Below are positions 43,577-52,861 of a stretch of 64,000 nucleotides of DNA, one piece after another (positions within the stretch are counted from its first letter, which is position 1; each line of letters starts with the position of its first letter). The notes beneath the pieces are model-generated. The model had not been told where the DNA came from. It saw nothing but the letters and a program-made list of their open reading frames with translations, and did not search any database. A program made the translations under genes and the position numbers. The stretch spans positions 62,001-126,000 of the forward strand of contig NZ_JAUTDN010000008.1 of assembly GCF_030646155.1 (NCBI RefSeq). Reading direction: 5' to 3'. Origin of the DNA: Conexibacter sp. CPCC 205762. Lineage in GTDB: Bacteria; Actinomycetota; Thermoleophilia; Solirubrobacterales; Solirubrobacteraceae.

Positions 43577-44734
43577 CTAGCCGAACAGCGCCACCGTCGC
43601 CGTGAACGAGTGCATGAAGCTCGCGGCGCCGACGGGGCCGATCTCGCCGGCGGCGAAGAAGCCGGCGGAGGGGGCGCCGGCGAGTTCGGCGGCGAGCGCG
43701 CCGGCGTCGTGGTCGGCGACGCCGAACATGTCGCGGCCGCGGGAGTGGCAGGCGAAGGCGAGCGCGCCGGCGGGGGCGCCGCCGAGCGCCTCGACCCGCA
43801 GCCGGATCTGGTCGTGCAGGTCGCGGCCGGCGGCGGCGGGGTCGCGGGCGTGGAGGCGCAGGACGGCGCCGGGCTCGACGCGGGCGGCGATCGCGATCGT
43901 GCCGGCGACCGGGTCGGCGCCGAGCAGGCCGCGCACGAGGAAGTCGCCCTGCTCGTAGTCGACCTGGCCGCCGTCGACGACGACGCCGATCAGCAGGCCG
44001 CCGGCGACGAGCGTCCGCTCGCGCGCGTCGAGCTGCTCGATCGTCTCGCGTATGTGGTCGAGCGCCGGGCGCCCGGCCAGCTCGGTTATGACGTTGCCCT
44101 CGGCCGCCGTCACCGTCATCTCCGGCCCGACCGGAGTCGCGCCCTGGGAGACGCACGGCAGCAGCTCGATCCCGTCGAAGCGGACCCCGACCGTGCCGGA
44201 CTCGACAACGCGGTCGCCGTGGAAGAGGGCGGCCGAGCCCTCGGCCGTGCGGGCGCTCGCGAGCCCGCCGACGATCGGCACGCCCGCCGCGCGCTCGGCG
44301 AGGTCGGTCAGCAGCGCGTCGGTCGGGAAGCTGTAGGGGTCGGGCAGCAGGATCGCGCCGCGTGCGCCTGCCAGATCCTCCATGCCGGTGATCGCGATCG
44401 TCTCCTCGATCTGCTGCGCGGTCGCGTGGAAGGTCGTCGCGCTGCCGCCGCCGAGCGCCGCCGCCCACACCGTCACGGCCGTGCCGCCCTCGTGCTCGGC
44501 GCCGCCGCCGAGCACGCCGCCGGCCCCGCAGCCGATCAGCGCCGGCGGTCGCAGCGCCTCGTGGACGCCCTCCAGCGTCGCCTCCGGCGCCGCCAGGTGC
44601 GCGCCCGCGGCGAAGACGATCGCGAGGTCTGCCTTCGCGCCCGCGAGCGCCCGCCCGGCCGCGTGCGCGGCCTCGATCGCACCGATGCGAGCATCGCCGT
44701 GCGTCGAGATTCCAGTTCCGATCCGTACCCCCAT
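43577..44734 (-). CDS. FIST-domain sensor protein
   Basis: The 385-residue protein comprises a FIST N domain (IGTGISTHGDARIGAIEAAH, LIGCGAGGVLGGGAEHE, GVPIVGGLASA) and a FIST C domain (LLIGVVVDGGQVDYEQGDFL to FACHSRGRDMFG and GEIGPVG). FIST domains are thought to bind small ligands such as amino acids and usually feed kinases or chemoreceptors; here there is no fused output domain. It is divergent from miaA, 64 bases away. A soluble ligand-binding partner for the window's chemoreceptors is possible but unproven. Confidence 0.85.
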   Translation of the reverse strand: MGVRIGTGISTHGDARIGAIEAAHAAGRALAGAKADLAIVFAAGAHLAAPEATLEGVHEALRPPALIGCGAGGVLGGGAEHEGGTAVTVWAAALGGGSATTFHATAQQIEETIAITGMEDLAGARGAILLPDPYSFPTDALLTDLAERAAGVPIVGGLASARTAEGSAALFHGDRVVESGTVGVRFDGIELLPCVSQGATPVGPEMTVTAAEGNVITELAGRPALDHIRETIEQLDARERTLVAGGLLIGVVVDGGQVDYEQGDFLVRGLLGADPVAGTIAIAARVEPGAVLRLHARDPAAAGRDLHDQIRLRVEALGGAPAGALAFACHSRGRDMFGVADHDAGALAAELAGAPSAGFFAAGEIGPVGAASFMHSFTATVALFG

Positions 44735-44798
44735 CACACCACCATACTGCTGGCTGGGATGCCGCTCGACGGTTCTCGCCGCCATACTGACCGCACCG

Positions 44799-45746
44799 AT
44801 GCCGCCGACCGTGATCGCCATCTTCGGGCCGACCGGAATCGGCAAGACGGCGGTCGCGCTGGCGCTCGCGCGGCGGCTGCGCGCGGCCGGCGAGGAGCCG
44901 CTCGCGATCTCCGCCGACGCGCTCCAGGTCTACGCAGGGCTGGAGCGGCTGACCGGCGCCGCCGACGCGACCGAGCAGGCCGAGCTGGAGCACCGGCTCG
45001 TCTCCTTCCTGCCGGTCTCCGAGACCTTCAGCGCCGGCGCCTACGCGGACAAGGCGCACCACGAGATCGACGCCGCGCTCGCCGCCGGCCGCACGCCGAT
45101 CGTCGTCGGCGGCACCGGCCTCTACCTGCGCGCGGCGCTGACGCAGCTCGACCTCAAGCCGCCGCCGGCGCCCGGCGCGCGCGAGCGCTGGACGGCCGAG
45201 CTGGAGCGCGTCGGCGCGCCCGCGCTGCACGCGCGCCTGGCCGAGCGGGCGGCGTGGGCGGCGGCGCCGATCGAGCCGAGCGACCGCCAGCGGATCGTGC
45301 GCGCGCACGAGCTGCTCGACGCGGGCGCGCTCCGGCCGCCTGCCGCAGACAACCAGCTGTGGACCGACACGATGCGCCGGCCGACCGTGCTCGCCGGCCT
45401 GACGCTCGAACGCGCCGAGCTGTACGCGCGGATCGACGCGCGCGTGGAGGCGATGGTCGCGGCGGGGGCGAGGGAGGAGGTCGAGCGCGCGGTCGCCGCG
45501 GGCGCGTCGGCGACCGCCCGCAGAGCGCTCGGCTTCGACGAGCTGCTGGCCGGCGACGTCGAGCAGATGAAGACCCGCACCCGCCAGTACGCCAAGCGCC
45601 AGCTGACCTGGATGCGCAAGCTCGCGGGTGTCGAGACGATCGACGTGACCGGCCGCGACGCGGACGAGGTCGCGGCCATCATCGATACCCTTCGCCGCCG
45701 GCAACCGCCCGTCCCAGACCCGTCCCAGACACCGGAGGCAGCGTGA
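44799..45746 (+). CDS. miaA: tRNA dimethylallyltransferase
   Basis: The 315-residue enzyme begins with a P-loop (IAIFGPTGIGKTAVALALAR) and has SADALQVYAGL (the substrate-binding Asp region), VVGGTGLYLRAAL, and RTRQYAKRQLTWMRKL, which binds the anticodon stem. It adds dimethylallyl to A37 of tRNAs reading UNN codons. DALQVY replaces the usual DSxQ(V/I)Y, a mild change. GTGA overlap links it to the dapF-like gene, the usual actinobacterial order. Confidence 0.95.
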   Translation: MPPTVIAIFGPTGIGKTAVALALARRLRAAGEEPLAISADALQVYAGLERLTGAADATEQAELEHRLVSFLPVSETFSAGAYADKAHHEIDAALAAGRTPIVVGGTGLYLRAALTQLDLKPPPAPGARERWTAELERVGAPALHARLAERAAWAAAPIEPSDRQRIVRAHELLDAGALRPPAADNQLWTDTMRRPTVLAGLTLERAELYARIDARVEAMVAAGAREEVERAVAAGASATARRALGFDELLAGDVEQMKTRTRQYAKRQLTWMRKLAGVETIDVTGRDADEVAAIIDTLRRRQPPVPDPSQTPEAA

Positions 45747-46612
45747 AGTTCGAGAAGTGGCAGGCGCTCGGCAACGACTACGCCATCATCGAGGCCGACG
45801 CGCTCCCGTTCGAGCTGACGCCGGCCCGCATCCGCGCCTTCTGCGCCGGCCATTTCGGCGTCTTCGCCGACGGCATCCTGCTGCTGTCCAGAAGCGCCCA
45901 GCCGGGCTTCGCCGCCGACCTGAAGATCTTCAACCCGGACGGCTCCGAGGCCGAGCTGTCGGGCAACGGCGCGCGCGAGGCGATCATGTACCTGCGCCAG
46001 CGCGGCTGGGTCGACGCGGACGAGTTCTCGATCATGACCGCGGCCGGCGAGATCCGCCCGAGCATCACCGGCCCGACCACCTGCAAGGTCGACATGGGCC
46101 GCGCCAAGCTCGTCTCCAAGGACTTCCCCTCCGGCCCCGACGACGGCGCCGCGGAGCTGATCGCCGACGGCACGACGTGGCGCTTCCAGCACGTCTCGAT
46201 CGGCAACCCTCAGTGCTCGATCAAGGTCGACTCGCTCCAGGCGCTGGAGGCGCTCGACCTGCCGGCGATCGGCGGCGCGCTGGAGCACCACGAGCTGTTC
46301 CCCAACCGCACGAACGTCTCCTGGTACGCCGAGCTGGCGCCCGACCGGATCCGCGCTCGCATCTTCGAGCGCGGCGTCGGCGAGACGCTCTCGTCCGGCA
46401 CCGGCGCGACCGGCGCCGCGGTCGCGCACGTGCTGCGCGGCGGCGGGGGCGACGATCCCGACCTCTCGACCGTCACCGTCGTGCTCGACGGCGGTGAGCT
46501 GGAGGTCGAGGTCGCCGAGGACCTGCACGTGAACCTGACCGGCTGGGCCGTCCCTGTCTTCAGAGGCGAGCTCTCCGAGAACTTCGTCAAGGAGCTCCAT
46601 GAGACCGAGTAA
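45743..46612 (+). CDS. dapF: Diaminopimelate epimerase-like protein lacking both catalytic cysteines
   Basis: GTG 45743 (GGAGG five bases before) gives 289 residues with the DapF scaffold: FEKWQALGNDYAIIEAD, IFNPDGSEAELSGNGARE, VSIGNPQCSI, PNRTNVSW and ERGVGETLSSGTGATGAA. DapF converts LL- to meso-diaminopimelate using two Cys, in GNGARC and in ETxACGxGA. Here these are Glu79 and Ser218; the bases read GAG and TCC. Substrate-contact motifs are kept, so the protein is not simply degraded. Either it uses another acid/base pair (PhzF, same fold, uses Glu) or it does something else. It overlaps dapL by 14 bases, supporting a diaminopimelate-related job. Confidence 0.85.
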   Translation: MKFEKWQALGNDYAIIEADALPFELTPARIRAFCAGHFGVFADGILLLSRSAQPGFAADLKIFNPDGSEAELSGNGAREAIMYLRQRGWVDADEFSIMTAAGEIRPSITGPTTCKVDMGRAKLVSKDFPSGPDDGAAELIADGTTWRFQHVSIGNPQCSIKVDSLQALEALDLPAIGGALEHHELFPNRTNVSWYAELAPDRIRARIFERGVGETLSSGTGATGAAVAHVLRGGGGDDPDLSTVTVVLDGGELEVEVAEDLHVNLTGWAVPVFRGELSENFVKELHETE

Positions 46613-47762
46613 GCGACTCGACCTGATCCCGCCGTACCTCTTCGCCCAGCTGGAGAAGAAGATCGCCGACAAGAAGGCGGCCGGGATCGACGTCATCTCG
46701 CTCGGCATCGGCGACCCCGACACGCCGACCTACGCGCCGATCGTCGCGGCGATGCAGAGAGCGGTCGCGGACCCGGGCACGCACCAGTACCCGTCCAACC
46801 GCGGTCGTCAGGACTTCCGCGCCGCGGTCGCCGCCTTCTACCAGCGCCGCTTCGGCGTCACGCTCGACGCCGACAGCGAGGTGATGCCGGCGATCGGCGC
46901 GAAGGAGTGCATCTTCAACCTCTCGCTCGCGTTCCTCGATCCCGAGGACATCGCGCTCGCGTCGGACCCCGGCTACCCGGTCTACACCGGCGGCCCGCTG
47001 CTGGCCGGCGCCGGCGCGGTGCTGATGCCGCTGAAGCCGGAGCTGGGATTCGCGCCCGACCTCGACGCGATCTCCGACGCCGACGCGGAGCGCGCGAAGC
47101 TGCTGTTCATCAACTACCCGAACAACCCGACCGGCGCGATCGTGCCGGACGGCTTCTTCGAGCAGGTGGTGGCGTTCGCGAAGCGGCACGACATCCTCGT
47201 CGTGCACGACAACGCCTACAGCGAGACGACGTACGACGGCTACGTGGCGCCGTCGTTCCTCGCGACGCCTGGCGCCAAGGAGGTCGGCGTCGAGGTCTTC
47301 TCGCTCTCCAAGGGCTACAACATGACCGGCTGGCGCGCGGCCGCGATCGTCGGCAACGCCGACGCGATCGCCGCGTACTGGAAGCTCAAGAGCAACGTCG
47401 ACTCGGGCCTGTTCGAGGCTGTCCAGCTGGCCGCCGTCGAGGCGCTCTCGACGGAGGTCGACAAGGACGTCGCGGCGATGAACGCCGTCTACACGCGCCG
47501 CCGCGACCTCGTCGTCGAGGCGCTGAGACAGGCCGGCGTCGAGGTGACCGCGCCGAAGGGCACGATCTACGTGTGGGCGCCGATCCCGGCCGGCTACGAG
47601 AACTCGGCCGCCTACTGCGAGCACGTGCTCGAGCAGGCCGCGGTCGTGATCTCGCCCGGCGGCGCCTACGGCGCCAGCGGCGAGGGCTTCTTCCGCATCT
47701 CGCTGACGACGCCCGACGAGCGCCTCGTCGAGGCCGTCGAGCGGATCAAGCAGCTGGGTTAA
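46599..47762 (+). CDS. dapL: LL-diaminopimelate aminotransferase
   Basis: The 387-residue PLP enzyme begins SKRLDLIPPYLFAQLEKKIA and has VISLGIGDPDTPTY, HQYPSNRGRQDFRAAVAAF, INYPNNPTGA, and the PLP Lys K238 in SLSKGYNMTGWR. This pattern is that of DapL, which makes LL-diaminopimelate directly from tetrahydrodipicolinate in one step, bypassing the succinyl route. Its product is the substrate of DapF, whose unusual homologue overlaps it by 14 bases. General aspartate-type aminotransferases are the main alternative. Confidence 0.88.
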   Translation: MRPSKRLDLIPPYLFAQLEKKIADKKAAGIDVISLGIGDPDTPTYAPIVAAMQRAVADPGTHQYPSNRGRQDFRAAVAAFYQRRFGVTLDADSEVMPAIGAKECIFNLSLAFLDPEDIALASDPGYPVYTGGPLLAGAGAVLMPLKPELGFAPDLDAISDADAERAKLLFINYPNNPTGAIVPDGFFEQVVAFAKRHDILVVHDNAYSETTYDGYVAPSFLATPGAKEVGVEVFSLSKGYNMTGWRAAAIVGNADAIAAYWKLKSNVDSGLFEAVQLAAVEALSTEVDKDVAAMNAVYTRRRDLVVEALRQAGVEVTAPKGTIYVWAPIPAGYENSAAYCEHVLEQAAVVISPGGAYGASGEGFFRISLTTPDERLVEAVERIKQLG

Positions 47763-47805: not shown

Positions 47806-49149
47806 ATGACGACGACCCGCAGCCGCAACGGCCGAACCGGAGAGAACAGAAGCGGTCACGAGACCGCCGCCGCCGGGCGCGCGAAGCAGCGTGCGCTGAT
47901 GATCGGAGCGCTGGAGCAGGGCGACGACCTCTCCGAGCTGCAGGAGCTGCTGCGGACCGCGGGCGTCGCGGTCGTCGGGCAGCTCGTCCAGCACCGCGAG
48001 AGACCGCACCCGAACACCTACCTCGGGCCCGGCAAGATCGACGAGCTGAGAGCGCTGCTGAAGAGCGGCGACGCGAACGTCGTCGCCTGCGACGACGAGC
48101 TGTCGCCGCGGCAGGAGCGCAACCTCGAGAGACTGCTGGACGTGCCGGTCGTCGACCGCACGACGGTGATCCTCGACATCTTCGCCGGCCACGCCCACTC
48201 GGCCGAGGGCAAGCTGCAGGTCGAGCTGGCGCAGCTGCAGTACAACCTCGCCCGCATGCGCGGGCTGTGGACCCACCTCGAACGACTCGGCGCCGGCGCC
48301 GGCGCGCCCGGCGGCGGCCCCGGCATCGGCACCCGCGGACCGGGCGAGTCGCAGATCGAGACCGACCGCCGCCTCGCGCGCGATCGCATCACCGCGCTGC
48401 GGCGCAGACTCGAACGCGTCAAGGGCTCGCGCGAGACGATGCGCGCCGAGCGCTCGCGCGCGCAGCTGCCGACGGTCGCGCTCGTCGGCTACACGAACGC
48501 GGGCAAGTCGACGCTGCTGAACAGACTGACCGGCGCCGAGGTCGGCGTCCGCAACCGGCTCTTCCACACGCTCGACCCGACGACCCGCTCCTACAGACTC
48601 GGCGGTCGCGACTACCTGCTGACCGACACCGTCGGCTTCATCCGCAAGCTGCCCCACCAGCTCGTCGACGCCTTCGGCGCGACGTTGGAGGAGACGCGGA
48701 TGGCGGACCTGCTGCTGCACGTCGTCGACGCCTCCGCGCCCGAGGACGAGCTGAACGAGATGATGAGAGCGGTCGACTCGGTGCTGGGCGAGATCGGCGC
48801 CGGCGAGCAGCCGCGGATGCTGATCCTCAACAAGGCCGACGCGCTCGAAGACGACCAGCGCGTCGACGTCGGCCTGCGCCACCCCGAGGGCCTGCTCGTG
48901 TCGGCGCTGACGGGCGAGGGGCTGGAGGACCTCGGCGAGCGGATCGAGCACGAGTTCGAGCGCCGCCTGCGCGACGTCGAGCTGCTGCTGCCCTACAGCG
49001 AGGGCGGCAGACTGGCCGAGCTGCACAGAATCGCCGGCGACCTCGTGCGCGAGGACACGCCGGAGGGCGTCCGCGTCACCGCGCGCGTCCCGGCGACGGT
49101 CGCGGCCAGATTCCAGCGCTACGTCGTCAACGGGAACCACGCCTCGTGA
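47806..49149 (+). CDS. hflX: Ribosome-associated GTPase HflX
   Basis: The 447-residue protein has the HflX N-domain ([52 protein letters not shown]), the Gly-rich hinge ([17 protein letters not shown]), and the G domain ([19 protein letters not shown]). It rescues or splits stalled ribosomes, often under stress. TAGACT at 47791 is a candidate -10 giving a very short leader. AGA codons are frequent although this is a cytoplasmic protein, an exception to the trend in the window. The stop overlaps the dut GTG. Confidence 0.96.
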
Positions 49150-50521: not shown

Positions 50522-52861
50522 ATGAAGATCACGACGACCCTGGCCGCCGCCGTCGGTGCGGCCCTCGCGCTCGCGGCGCCGGCATCCGGCGCCGCGCTGA
50601 GCGATCCGACGGAGGCCGGGCGCTATGAGCTGGCGCGCGACCTCGTGCTGCCGACGCCGACGCTGACCGACGCGAGCCCGATCATCAGCGTCGGCGACGC
50701 CGCCGGCCGCAGAGGGATCCGCGAGGGCGGCCTGTCCGCGCTGCAGGTGGTGCCGGGGAGCGGCAACCGTCGCTTCATCTCGATCTCCGATCGCGGCCCC
50801 AACGGCGCGGTCGACGGCGCCGTCGGCGGCAGAAGCTACCCGTCGCCCGGCTTCTCGCCGATCATCTACGAGCTGGAGGCCGACGACTCCGGCCGTCTTG
50901 ACGTGCTCTCGCGCAAGCAGGTCTACGTGCCGGCCGGCGACCCGATCCGCCAGCAGGACCAGTTCAGAGGCGACTCGCAGCTGATCTCCGGCATCCGCAA
51001 CGTCGTCACGACAGGCGTGGACGACCGTACGTACCTGATGGCGAGCGACACCACGCTGTCGGAGTTCACGCCGACCGACCCATACGGCCTCGACTCCGAG
51101 GGGATCCAGCGCGACCCGCGCGACGGCTCCTACTGGATCTCCGACGAGTACCGCCCGTCGATCCTGCACGTCGCCCGTGACGGCCAGCTGCTGGCGCGGA
51201 TCGTGCCCGACGGCGCCGGCGACCTCGACACCGACCCGACCGCCGCGACAGTCCCGCTGTCGAGCTTCTACGGCGGCATCGGCCAGCCGCTGCTGCAGCA
51301 GATCCTGCCGCGCGAATACAACGCCCGCCGCATGAATCGCGGCCTCGAGGGCCTGGCGCTCTCGCCTGACGGCACGAAGCTGTACGCGATGATGCAGAAC
51401 TCGCTCGACACCGGCAGAGCGTCGCTCGCCGCGCTCGGCTACGGCACCGCCTGCGGCCCGGCCGGTGACGCCGGCAGCGACACGCCGGCCAGCAGCAACT
51501 GGTGGCGCGACCTGCGCATCGTCGAGCTGGACGTCGCCGACGGCGGCGTTCCGAGAGTGACCGGCGAGTGGGTCTACCGGCTCGACTCGCTCTCCACGAC
51601 GAGAGTCGCGACGCAGGCCTTCCTGCGCGTCAGCGACATCGCCTGGACCGGCTCGCGCAGACTGATCGTCGACGAGCACGACGACGTCAACACGGCCAAG
51701 AACGGCCGCAAGCTGTTCGAGGTCGACCTCAACCAGGCGACCAATCTGATGGCCGCCGGCTCGTACGACACGTACGCCGAGCGCCAGGCGCCGGTCACCG
51801 TCGGCAGCCGCACGCAGCCGCTCGGCTGCTTCCTCGACAACGGCTCGGCCGACGAGCTGTCGCAGCTGGCGACGCCGGTCACGCCGACGCCGAAGTCGGT
51901 CTACCTCAGCCTCGGCTTCCAGAGAGACGGCGGCGTCGAGTTCCTGCAGGGCAAGATCGAGGGGATCGCGCCGCTGCAGGGGATCGACGGCATCGCGATC
52001 GTCAACGACAACGACTTCGGCTTCGACCAGAACGCGACGACGAACATCTTCTCCGCCGCCGCCGATCCCGCCTCGCAGCTGCGCGTCTACACCAGCCGCC
52101 CGCAGGTCAGCGGCGGCGGCCCGGCGGTCAGCGGCAGCGCCAAGGCCGGCCGCACGCTCACCTGCGCGCCCGGCGACTTCAGCGGCAGCGGCACGCTCTC
52201 GACCGCGATCGCCTGGCTGCGCAACGGCAGCGAGATCGCTGGGGCGGAGGGGACGCGGCTGACGCTGTCGGCGGAGGACGTCGGCGCGACGATCGCCTGC
52301 CGCGTCACCGCGACGCGTCGCTACGGCGCCGTCAGAGCGGTCTCGGCGCCGGCCGACTCGGCCGCGACCGCGGCCGTCGCCGACTTCGACAGAGGCGCTG
52401 ACGGCCAGAGAGGCGACACGGGCGCGCAGGGCCCCAGAGGCGACAACGGCGCGCAGGGCCCGAGAGGCGACACGGGCAGCGCCGGCAGAGACGGCGCGAA
52501 CGGCGCGAAGGGCGACAGCGGCGCCGCCGGGCCGAAGGGCGACGGCGGCCCCGCCGGACCCGAGGGCGACAGCGGCCCGGCCGGCCCGCAGGGCGAGCGC
52601 GGCCCCGCCGGCCCGACGCCGAGGGTCTCCTGCACGCTCGTCAAGCGCAAGCGCGTGATCGCCGGCGTGCGCTGCAAGGTGAGCGCGAGCAGGGCGGCGA
52701 CGATCGTCGCGCGCAGAGGCGGCCGCACGCTCGCCCGCGCGACGGCGCACCGCGGCAGCGCCGCCCTGCGCCTGCCGGCGACGGCGCGGCGCGTCACGTT
52801 CGCGGCGCTCGACCGCCACGGCAAGACGCTCGCGCGCGTGACCGTGAAGGTCCGCCGCTAG
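50522..52861 (+). CDS. Secreted esterase-like (phytase-like) protein with collagen-like stretch
   Basis: The 779-residue protein has a signal peptide ([20 protein letters not shown]) and an esterase-like phytase domain (PF13449-like; about residues 25-530: [73 protein letters not shown]). A bacterial Ig-like segment ([16 protein letters not shown]) follows, then 25 uninterrupted Gly-x-y triplets (52393-52617) and a basic C-terminal module. The collagen-like part may form a trimeric stalk holding the enzyme away from the cell. Substrate is unknown; phosphate esters are suggested by family. Confidence 0.85.
52393..52617 (+). repeat. Collagen-like Gly-x-y coding repeat
   Basis: Twenty-five consecutive Gly-x-y triplets, rich in charged residues (GDT, GPR, GDN, GPK, GER), code for a predicted triple helix. 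Hydroxyproline is absent in bacteria, and charge pairs are the usual stabiliser. Confidence 0.85.

What the first reader, a model, noticed from the sequence alone, without database searches (positions are those of the whole stretch)
45743..46612. DapF-like protein with both catalytic cysteines replaced, fused by overlap to dapL
Seen: the translation keeps DapF substrate motifs (GNDY, NPDGSE, SGNGAR, GNPQC, NRTNVSW, ERGVGET) but the two Cys needed for two-base epimerisation are Glu79 (GAG) and Ser218 (TCC). Known: DapF uses a Cys thiolate/thiol pair; PhzF, of the same fold, uses a Glu and no Cys. Inference: either this enzyme makes meso-DAP by a new acid/base pair, or it is a DapF-derived enzyme or regulator tied to DapL, which makes LL-DAP. 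It occupies the usual dapF place after miaA, so if no other dapF exists the cell must either make meso-DAP in an unknown way or use LL-DAP.
Basis: partly seen in the sequence, partly recalled or inferred. Interest (0 to 1): 0.8.

Follow-up and report, generated by a model that had tools for sequence, protein, structure and literature searches.

The report
Serine-for-cysteine DAP epimerase in soil bacteria
A soil bacterium's only detected copy of the enzyme that makes a key cell-wall and lysine building block has both of its supposedly essential cysteines replaced by serines, and the same swap is fixed in its relatives, which suggests that this chemistry can run without thiols.

Summary
The gene is real: a full-length DapF (TIGR00652, 185 bits against a 114.65 cut-off) between miaA and dapL. 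The N-terminal catalytic Cys is the one before GNG, so the replaced pair is Ser73/Ser218, not Glu79/Ser218. Residue 79 varies in ordinary Cys/Cys DapFs.

It is the only DapF found in its genome, and the pair is fixed: Ser73 in 72/72 and 80/80, Ser218 in 72/72 and 79/80 sequences read from the order. Substrate-binding residues are intact. Two other families of the class are Ser/Ser, and Ser/Cys and Cys/Ser forms occur elsewhere in the phylum (at least 9 and 8 changes on a weakly resolved tree). It sits near dapL or dapD, so it is not tied to DapL. LysA is present, DAP dehydrogenase was not found over cut-off, and meso-DAP walls are published for the order. The predicted fold is DapF, with both serines at helix N-termini.

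Best reading: a working DAP epimerase with a Ser/Ser pair, a new variant of DapF. The proline racemase superfamily has a Ser/Cys epimerase; my searches listed no natural Ser/Ser one. Activity is inferred, not shown.

The parts
45743..46612 (+). dapF orthologue, Ser/Ser variant (289 aa, GTG start)
   Evidence: TIGR00652 185.2 bits vs cut-off 114.65; PF01678 131.7 bits, two stretches; AF2 model pLDDT 95.3 with DapF as best PDB matches
45959..45961 (+). Ser73 (TCG), in place of the N-terminal catalytic Cys of C-G-N-G
   Evidence: codon; alignment with DapFs of known structure; Ser in 72 of 72 and 80 of 80 order sequences, sets overlapping
46394..46396 (+). Ser218 (TCC), in place of the C-terminal catalytic Cys of A-C-G-T-G
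   Evidence: codon; Ser in 72 of 72 and 79 of 80 order sequences, sets overlapping
45977..45979 (+).
   Evidence: M/I/V/Q in 22 Cys/Cys relatives, Q in 6 of 72 order sequences; inside helix 74-86 of the model
46211..46213 (+). Gln157, where all other DapFs I aligned have His (GNPH to GNPQ), an order-specific change
   Evidence: Q in 72 of 72 and 80 of 80 order sequences; H in all 108 rows outside the order
44793..45746 (+). miaA, upstream, 4-nt overlap with dapF (start position approximate, chosen by me)
   Evidence: TIGR00174 163.8 bits vs cut-off 148.65
46599..47762 (+). dapL, LL-diaminopimelate aminotransferase, 14-nt overlap with dapF
   Evidence: NF006756 536.6 bits over cut-off 507; below the cut-off of TIGR03540 (513.6 vs 593.25)
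47806..49149 (+). hflX, downstream
   Evidence: TIGR03156 425.4 bits vs cut-off 216.75

Best explanation
The protein is the cell's diaminopimelate epimerase. It converts the LL-DAP made by DapL (next gene) into meso-DAP for the wall (MurE) and for lysine (LysA), but uses two serines, Ser73 and Ser218, where the characterised DapFs in the papers I saw use two cysteines. Shown here: sequence, fixation, no second copy found, conserved substrate site, operon, and the pathway genes on both sides. Inferred: that it epimerises LL-DAP, and that the serines take the proton on and off the alpha carbon, their alkoxide form favoured by the N-terminus of a helix and by exclusion of water when the two domains close.
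For: Fixed pair: Ser73/Ser218 in 72 of 72 sequences of families f1-f4; in 80 named loci Ser73 80 and Ser218 79. Both TCN and AGY serine codons are used at each site (77 order rows including a few repeats). The eight binding residues whose alanine mutants were nearly dead in CgDapF (mapped by motif and spacing) are kept: seven identical in all 185 rows, the eighth Thr or Ser. Only DapF found in the own genome and in seven single-contig genomes of the order whose residues I read (G006, G023, G087, G144, G263, G303, G109). LysA found in 57 of 57 class genomes, over cut-off in 56. DAP dehydrogenase over cut-off in 0 of 57. MurE over cut-off in 22 of 22, with TSDNPR in all 17 order genomes. Meso-DAP stated as diagnostic for the order as it stood in 2010 (PMC3035278, passage) and reported for Solirubrobacter deserti CPCC 204708 (PMC10722151, passages). 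Ser at either site recurs in the phylum. Precedent in the same fold: a Ser/Cys 4-hydroxyproline epimerase (PMC4113996, passages). Model: each Ser directly precedes a helix, 74-86 and 219-231.
Against: Chemistry: engineered Cys-to-Ser in a relative greatly reduces turnover (HisR C67S, C209S; PMC11602996, passages), and C83A and C221A nearly abolish CgDapF. Serine is harder to desolvate and less acidic than Cys (review section 7). The order also lost the His of GNPH (Gln157), so the site is changed beyond the two serines. In G463 a Ser/Ser copy coexists with a Cys/Cys copy, so Ser/Ser can also be a paralogue. One of 80 has Gly at 218 (L194) and one His at 75 (L193). Two Ser/Cys genomes (G432, G455) have no LysA hit and G508 only one below cut-off, so the lysine argument does not cover them. 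The TSDNPR motif was not found in MurE of the f11 genome G155. One order MAG (G360) has a second, CGNG-type hit. No activity data; an unrelated epimerase cannot be excluded by sequence.
Confidence: 0.68

Rival explanations
1. The Ser/Ser protein is no longer a two-base epimerase. An unknown, non-homologous epimerase makes meso-DAP, and this protein is kept as a DAP-binding scaffold or regulator of the dap genes.
For: Cys-to-Ser mutants of a relative are crippled; Gln157 replaces a His found in all 108 rows outside the order; only known families could be searched.
Against: The substrate-binding residues are kept; the swap recurs at exactly these two positions in several lineages (weakly resolved tree); it stays in place whether dapL or dapD is the neighbour, which a DapL-specific role would not predict.
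Confidence: 0.14
2. The reaction or its direction changed: a racemase for another substrate, a one-way LL-to-meso enzyme, or an eliminase, as with the Cys/Thr dehydratases and the Cys/Thr Asp/Glu racemases.
For: In the proline racemase superfamily a Ser/Thr pair was found in a dehydratase (PMC4113996, passages); Cys/Thr Asp/Glu racemases are reported or predicted to be one-way (PMC8142540, section 7).
Against: Residues that hold the distal DAP amino and carboxyl groups in Anabaena DapF (here Asn64, Asn155, Asn191, Glu209, Arg210) are invariant in 185 rows; the operon and the need for meso-DAP remain. A one-way LL-to-meso enzyme would still be a DAP epimerase in practice.
Confidence: 0.12
3. 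Glu79 is the new base, as in PhzF.
For: Glu in 66 of 72 and 72 of 80 order sequences, otherwise Gln.
Against: Not aligned with the catalytic Cys; position is M/I/V/Q in 22 Cys/Cys relatives and I in the 8 Ser/Ser proteins of f7 and f11; Gln could not serve as the base in 6 of 72 and 8 of 80; lies inside a helix.
Confidence: 0.03
4. A decayed paralogue with a canonical DapF elsewhere in the genome.
For: The own assembly is 90.86% complete; one MAG of the order (G360, 4% contamination) has a second CGNG-type hit (L314).
Against: Seven single-contig genomes of the order have one hit, the Ser/Ser copy. The same query finds the Cys/Cys DapFs of other families of the class at E 8.8e-64 to 6.5e-32 and most phylum ones at 1e-10 or better, so an ordinary paralogue should have been seen. 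No stops in 80 loci, and identity to relatives like that of miaA and hflX (medians 67, 66, 68%; 44 loci).
Confidence: 0.02

Closest known systems
Canonical DapF (Haemophilus influenzae, Corynebacterium glutamicum, Anabaena, Arabidopsis)
   Same: Fold (Foldseek E 3.5e-31 to 9mro_A, TM 0.86), length, operon role, DAP-binding residues.
   Different: Both catalytic cysteines are serine; in the order the His of GNPH is Gln.
Laboratory C73S and C217S mutants of H. influenzae DapF (PDB 2q9h, 2q9j)
   Same: Serine at the same site, one at a time; ranks 4 and 13 in the fold search.
   Different: Such mutants are made because the change hinders catalysis and helps to crystallise the open form (PMC12039745, passage); here both serines are natural and fixed.
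Ser/Cys 4-hydroxyproline 2-epimerase and Ser/Thr trans-3-hydroxyproline dehydratase of the proline racemase superfamily (PMC4113996)
   Same: Same overall fold; natural serine as catalytic residue; function assigned and structures solved there (passages).
   Different: Members of that superfamily match the model at 14-19% identity; other substrates; only one serine, with Cys or Thr opposite.
Cys/Thr aspartate/glutamate racemases (EcL-DER, MMP0739; PMC8142540)
   Same: A natural hydroxyl residue replaces one catalytic Cys (section 7).
   Different: Unrelated fold family (recalled); Thr, one side only; reported or predicted to be one-way.
PhzF / YddE
   Same: DapF-like fold (best E 7.8e-17, 16% identity).
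   Different: Uses a Glu at another place (recalled); clearly more distant than DapF.

Membership tests
DapF (diaminopimelate epimerase, TIGR00652) | Profile score over the curated equivalog cut-off | tested here: met
   185.2 bits vs 114.65
DapF (diaminopimelate epimerase, TIGR00652) | Two-domain DapF fold | tested here: met
   AF2 model pLDDT 95.3, pTM 0.91; the 26 best PDB matches are DapF or the related O-ureidoserine racemase
DapF (diaminopimelate epimerase, TIGR00652) | DAP-binding residues (Cg N15, N74, N85, N159, N194, E212, R213, T223) | tested here: met
   Window N11, N64, N75, N155, N191, E209, R210, T220, mapped by motif and spacing
DapF (diaminopimelate epimerase, TIGR00652) | Catalytic Cys/Cys pair | tested here: not met
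   Ser73 and Ser218. It is a DapF by descent, fold and substrate site, not a canonical Cys/Cys DapF
DapF (diaminopimelate epimerase, TIGR00652) | Epimerisation of LL-DAP | not testable with these tools
   Needs an enzyme assay; inferred from pathway context only
DapF (diaminopimelate epimerase, TIGR00652) | Place in the DAP/lysine pathway: LL-DAP made upstream, meso-DAP used downstream | tested here: met
   dapL adjacent; own genome has LysA and MurE over cut-off and no DAP dehydrogenase hit
PhzF | Catalytic Glu and closest relationship to PhzF | tested here: not met
   PhzF first appears at rank 27 of the fold search, 16% identity; Glu79 is not at a catalytic position
Proline racemase superfamily | Closest sequence relationship to that superfamily | tested here: not met
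   Pfam gives only DAP_epimerase at E up to 0.001; members of that superfamily appear from rank 37 of the fold search at 14-19% identity

The most novel reading that the evidence does not exclude
A cofactor-independent amino-acid epimerase that runs two-base proton transfer with a Ser/Ser pair and no thiol, fixed across an order of soil Actinomycetota and reached repeatedly in the phylum through Ser/Cys and Cys/Ser forms. Cysteine would then be replaceable in DapF, perhaps as an escape from disulfide or oxidative inactivation, and thiol-directed DapF inhibitors would not bind covalently to such enzymes.
Probability: 0.62. Interest if true: 0.85.

Novelty: new variant of a known kind. Interest (0 to 1): 0.72.

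Why it matters
DapF is a textbook case of a thiolate/thiol pair pulling a very weakly acidic alpha proton, and engineered Cys-to-Ser changes in such enzymes cost most of the activity. A natural enzyme with serine on both sides and no second copy found, in bacteria with meso-DAP walls, would show that the thiols can be replaced. That makes an open question directly testable: what lowers the barrier in cofactor-independent racemases if not the sulfur? It also gives a natural series (Cys/Cys, Ser/Cys, Cys/Ser, Ser/Ser) for studying how a catalytic pair changes one residue at a time, and a caution for annotation, since family profiles call these proteins DapF without checking the catalytic pair.

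Tried and rejected
Glu79 as base: rejected on alignment, on its variation, and on its place inside a helix. Cys158 or Cys34 taking over: Cys158 is 71 of 72 in the order but also 9 of 22 in Cys/Cys forms, and is Thr in one Ser/Ser order member; Cys34 is invariant in alignments A1 and A2, but I did not test it further. DAP dehydrogenase as bypass: 0 of 57 and 0 of 21 genomes over cut-off; the weak hits (7 and 4 genomes) are partial matches far below it. LL-DAP walls: against published statements for the order. A DapL-specific partner. DapX as an alternative epimerase: in GapMind it is an acetyl-DAP aminotransferase (PMC7311316, passages). A look for Gaiella wall chemistry gave nothing on DAP in the passages seen, so f7 and f11 rest on genes alone.

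Novelty searches in the held library. Listings and, for a few papers, passages were seen; one search found 35 papers and listed 20. Nothing seen describes a natural Ser/Ser DapF. Most subscription papers are not held, so this is not proof that none is in print.

Limits: the tree is quick and weakly resolved (44 of 123 inner branches open); starred branches alone force only one change for the Ser/Ser label. The 185-row table contains repeats of the same gene fetched twice (L220, L221, L283, L284, L297, L299 at least) and two copies from G361; L297, L299 and most order rows were left out of the tree. The phylum sample had 149 genomes, 138 with a match; I read residues from part of them only, chosen by spread over the match list, not at random.

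Full report
WHAT IS THERE. Its nearest named relative in the search is Conexibacter arvalis DSM 23288, 90% identical in this protein. G001 of the same genus code has its hit at the same coordinates as that record, so I infer the genus Conexibacter. The ORF at 45743-46612 (+) is 289 aa with a GTG start. It scores 185.2 bits to TIGR00652 (DapF; cut-off 114.65) and both halves match PF01678. Neighbours are miaA (4-nt overlap), dapL (14-nt overlap) and hflX. No other PF01678 protein was found in the genome.

WHICH RESIDUES ARE REPLACED. The C. glutamicum paper names Cys83 and Cys221 as catalytic and Asn85 among the binding residues; Gly84 follows Cys83 (PMC5296763, passages seen). The N-terminal catalytic Cys is therefore the first letter of C-G-N-G. 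In the printed alignments to solved DapFs this is Ser73 of the window. The true pair is Ser73 (TCG) and Ser218 (TCC). The eight residues whose alanine mutants were nearly dead in C. glutamicum are all present, mapped by motif and spacing: N11, N64, N75, N155, N191, E209, R210, T220.

IS IT FIXED? In the class search, 367 of 399 genomes had a match, most of them one. I read 72 order sequences (the window plus L004-L074, families f1-f4; two are from one genome, G361): Ser73 72 of 72, Ser218 72 of 72, Gln157 72 of 72, Glu79 66 and Gln79 6. A scan of named genomes kept the best 80 of 446 relatives: Ser73 80, Ser218 79 (L194 has Gly), Gln157 80, position 79 Glu 72 and Gln 8; Asn75 is His in one (L193). 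The named strains include Conexibacter arvalis, Patulibacter medicamentivorans, P. americanus, P. minatonensis, Paraconexibacter antarcticus, Solirubrobacter soli and S. deserti. The two sets overlap. Serine codons of both boxes (TCN and AGY) are used at each site, no dapF match among the 80 has a stop, and dapF is about as conserved as miaA and hflX (median identity to the window 67, 66, 68%; dapL 73%; 44 loci).

OUTSIDE THE ORDER. In the same class, families f7 and f11 are also Ser/Ser (8 of 8 read; L282 adds one); those 8 have His157 and Ile79. The 22 sequences read from families f5, f6, f8, f9, f10 and f12 were Cys/Cys; a further f5 one (L223) is Cys/Cys and a further f9 one (L222) is Ser/Cys. 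With part of a phylum sample added, 185 rows (with a few repeats) gave Ser/Ser 89, Cys/Cys 78, Ser/Cys 10, Cys/Ser 8. Seven of the eight binding residues are identical in all 185 rows and the eighth is Thr or Ser. On a tree of 126 rows with the two columns masked, parsimony needs at least 9 changes at site 73 and 8 at site 218. The tree is weak: starred branches alone force only one change for the Ser/Ser label, three for Ser/Cys and two for Cys/Ser. Of 21 genomes outside the order that I chose for a Ser-bearing DapF, LysA was over cut-off in 18, below it in one (G508) and absent in two (G432, G455); DAP dehydrogenase was over cut-off in none. Against a simple reading, G463 has both a Cys/Cys and a Ser/Ser copy.

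DOES THE CELL NEED MESO-DAP? LysA, which decarboxylates meso-DAP (recalled), was found in 57 of 57 class genomes tested and over cut-off in 56 (31 genomes of the order, 11 of f7/f11, 15 of the other families; the one below is G091 of f7, split in two pieces). DAP dehydrogenase, the known bypass, was over cut-off in 0 of 57. MurE was over cut-off in 22 of 22. The motif TSDNPR was read in 20 of 22, including all 17 order genomes; it was not found in G155 (f11) and G012 (f9). That DNPR marks DAP-adding MurE is recalled. The C. woesei genome paper of 2010 says meso-DAP is diagnostic for all members of Solirubrobacterales (PMC3035278, passage); the order used by the search tool is wider. The S. deserti paper reports meso-DAP in the type strain's hydrolysate (PMC10722151, passages). 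For f7 and f11 I found no wall chemistry.

SECOND COPIES. Seven single-contig genomes of the order whose residues I read (G006, G023, G087, G144, G263, G303, G109) have exactly one hit, the Ser/Ser copy. Order genomes with extra hits were re-examined: the extras were pieces of one gene or contig-end fragments, a second Ser/Ser copy (G361), weak hits (G083, G168), or one CGNG-type ORF in a MAG with 4% contamination (G360, L314). Five genomes in that call had no hit (G228, G352, G363, G373, G356); they are fragmented assemblies, 77-93% complete.

OPERON. dapL is adjacent in 59 of 80 named loci. Of the other 21, 17 carry dapD nearby, among them Solirubrobacter, Patulibacter and Paraconexibacter. 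In Paraconexibacter antarcticus (L180) dapD is the next gene; in S. deserti (L209) one ORF lies between. Both routes deliver LL-DAP (established pathway knowledge). So the Ser/Ser protein follows the pathway, not DapL.

STRUCTURE. AlphaFold2 with 48 sequences gave pLDDT 95.3, pTM 0.91; Ser73 directly precedes helix 74-86 and Ser218 helix 219-231. This is the placement described for the catalytic cysteines at helix N-termini (PMC12039745, passages). The best 26 PDB matches are DapF or O-ureidoserine racemase; the laboratory C73S and C217S mutants of H. influenzae DapF rank 4 and 13.

MECHANISM. Shown: the pair, its fixation, the intact DAP site, no second copy found, and the pathway around it. 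Inferred: that the protein epimerises LL-DAP by a two-base path with Ser73 and Ser218. [quoted passage not shown] Two facts soften it. The proline racemase superfamily has a natural Ser/Cys epimerase and a Ser/Thr dehydratase (PMC4113996, passages), and in DapF the change recurs exactly at these two positions in several lineages. The GNPH to GNPQ change in the order suggests the rest of the site was tuned; its role is unknown.

WHY SERINE? A speculative reason is escape from oxidation: C. glutamicum DapF closes by a disulfide between its two catalytic cysteines, which its authors propose as a redox switch; a Ser/Ser enzyme cannot form it. I did not test this.

VERDICT. The finding is real, one of its two residues was misassigned, and the corrected version is stronger than the original. 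I file it as a Ser/Ser variant of DapF: a DapF by descent, fold and substrate site that fails the Cys-pair criterion. Activity remains to be shown.

Noticed in passing
L314 (G360:C165:5078-5812 plus flanks): A second, CGNG-type DapF-like ORF, 36% identical to the window protein, in one Solirubrobacterales MAG; possibly contamination or a true paralogue.
   Followed up: partly
L194 (MAG JOPF084), L193 (MAG RYN_254): Single departures in the otherwise fixed site: Gly at 218 in L194, His at 75 in L193.
   Followed up: no
L246 (G463): A Ser/Ser DapF paralogue in a genome that also has a Cys/Cys copy; its second half reads SSATG instead of SSGTG.
   Followed up: partly
L078-L104 and L222-L301: In Ser218 DapFs outside the order, position 222 is Ser in 12 of 20 and 221 is Ser in 8 of 20, against 1 and 0 of 88 in Cys218 forms: possible companion changes.
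   Followed up: partly
L162, L176, L180, L187, L198, L209: Solirubrobacter, Patulibacter and Paraconexibacter have dapD instead of dapL near the same dapF: a swap of lysine-pathway branches within one order.
   Followed up: partly
window 43577-44845 (-): FIST N/FIST_C domain protein beside miaA.
   Followed up: no
window 50522-52861 (+): Large protein with a phytase-like esterase domain and collagen triple-helix repeats.
   Followed up: no
G303:C1:4599664-4600880, G091:C1:879886-881101: LysA matches split into two pieces in these genomes; frameshift or assembly error.
   Followed up: no
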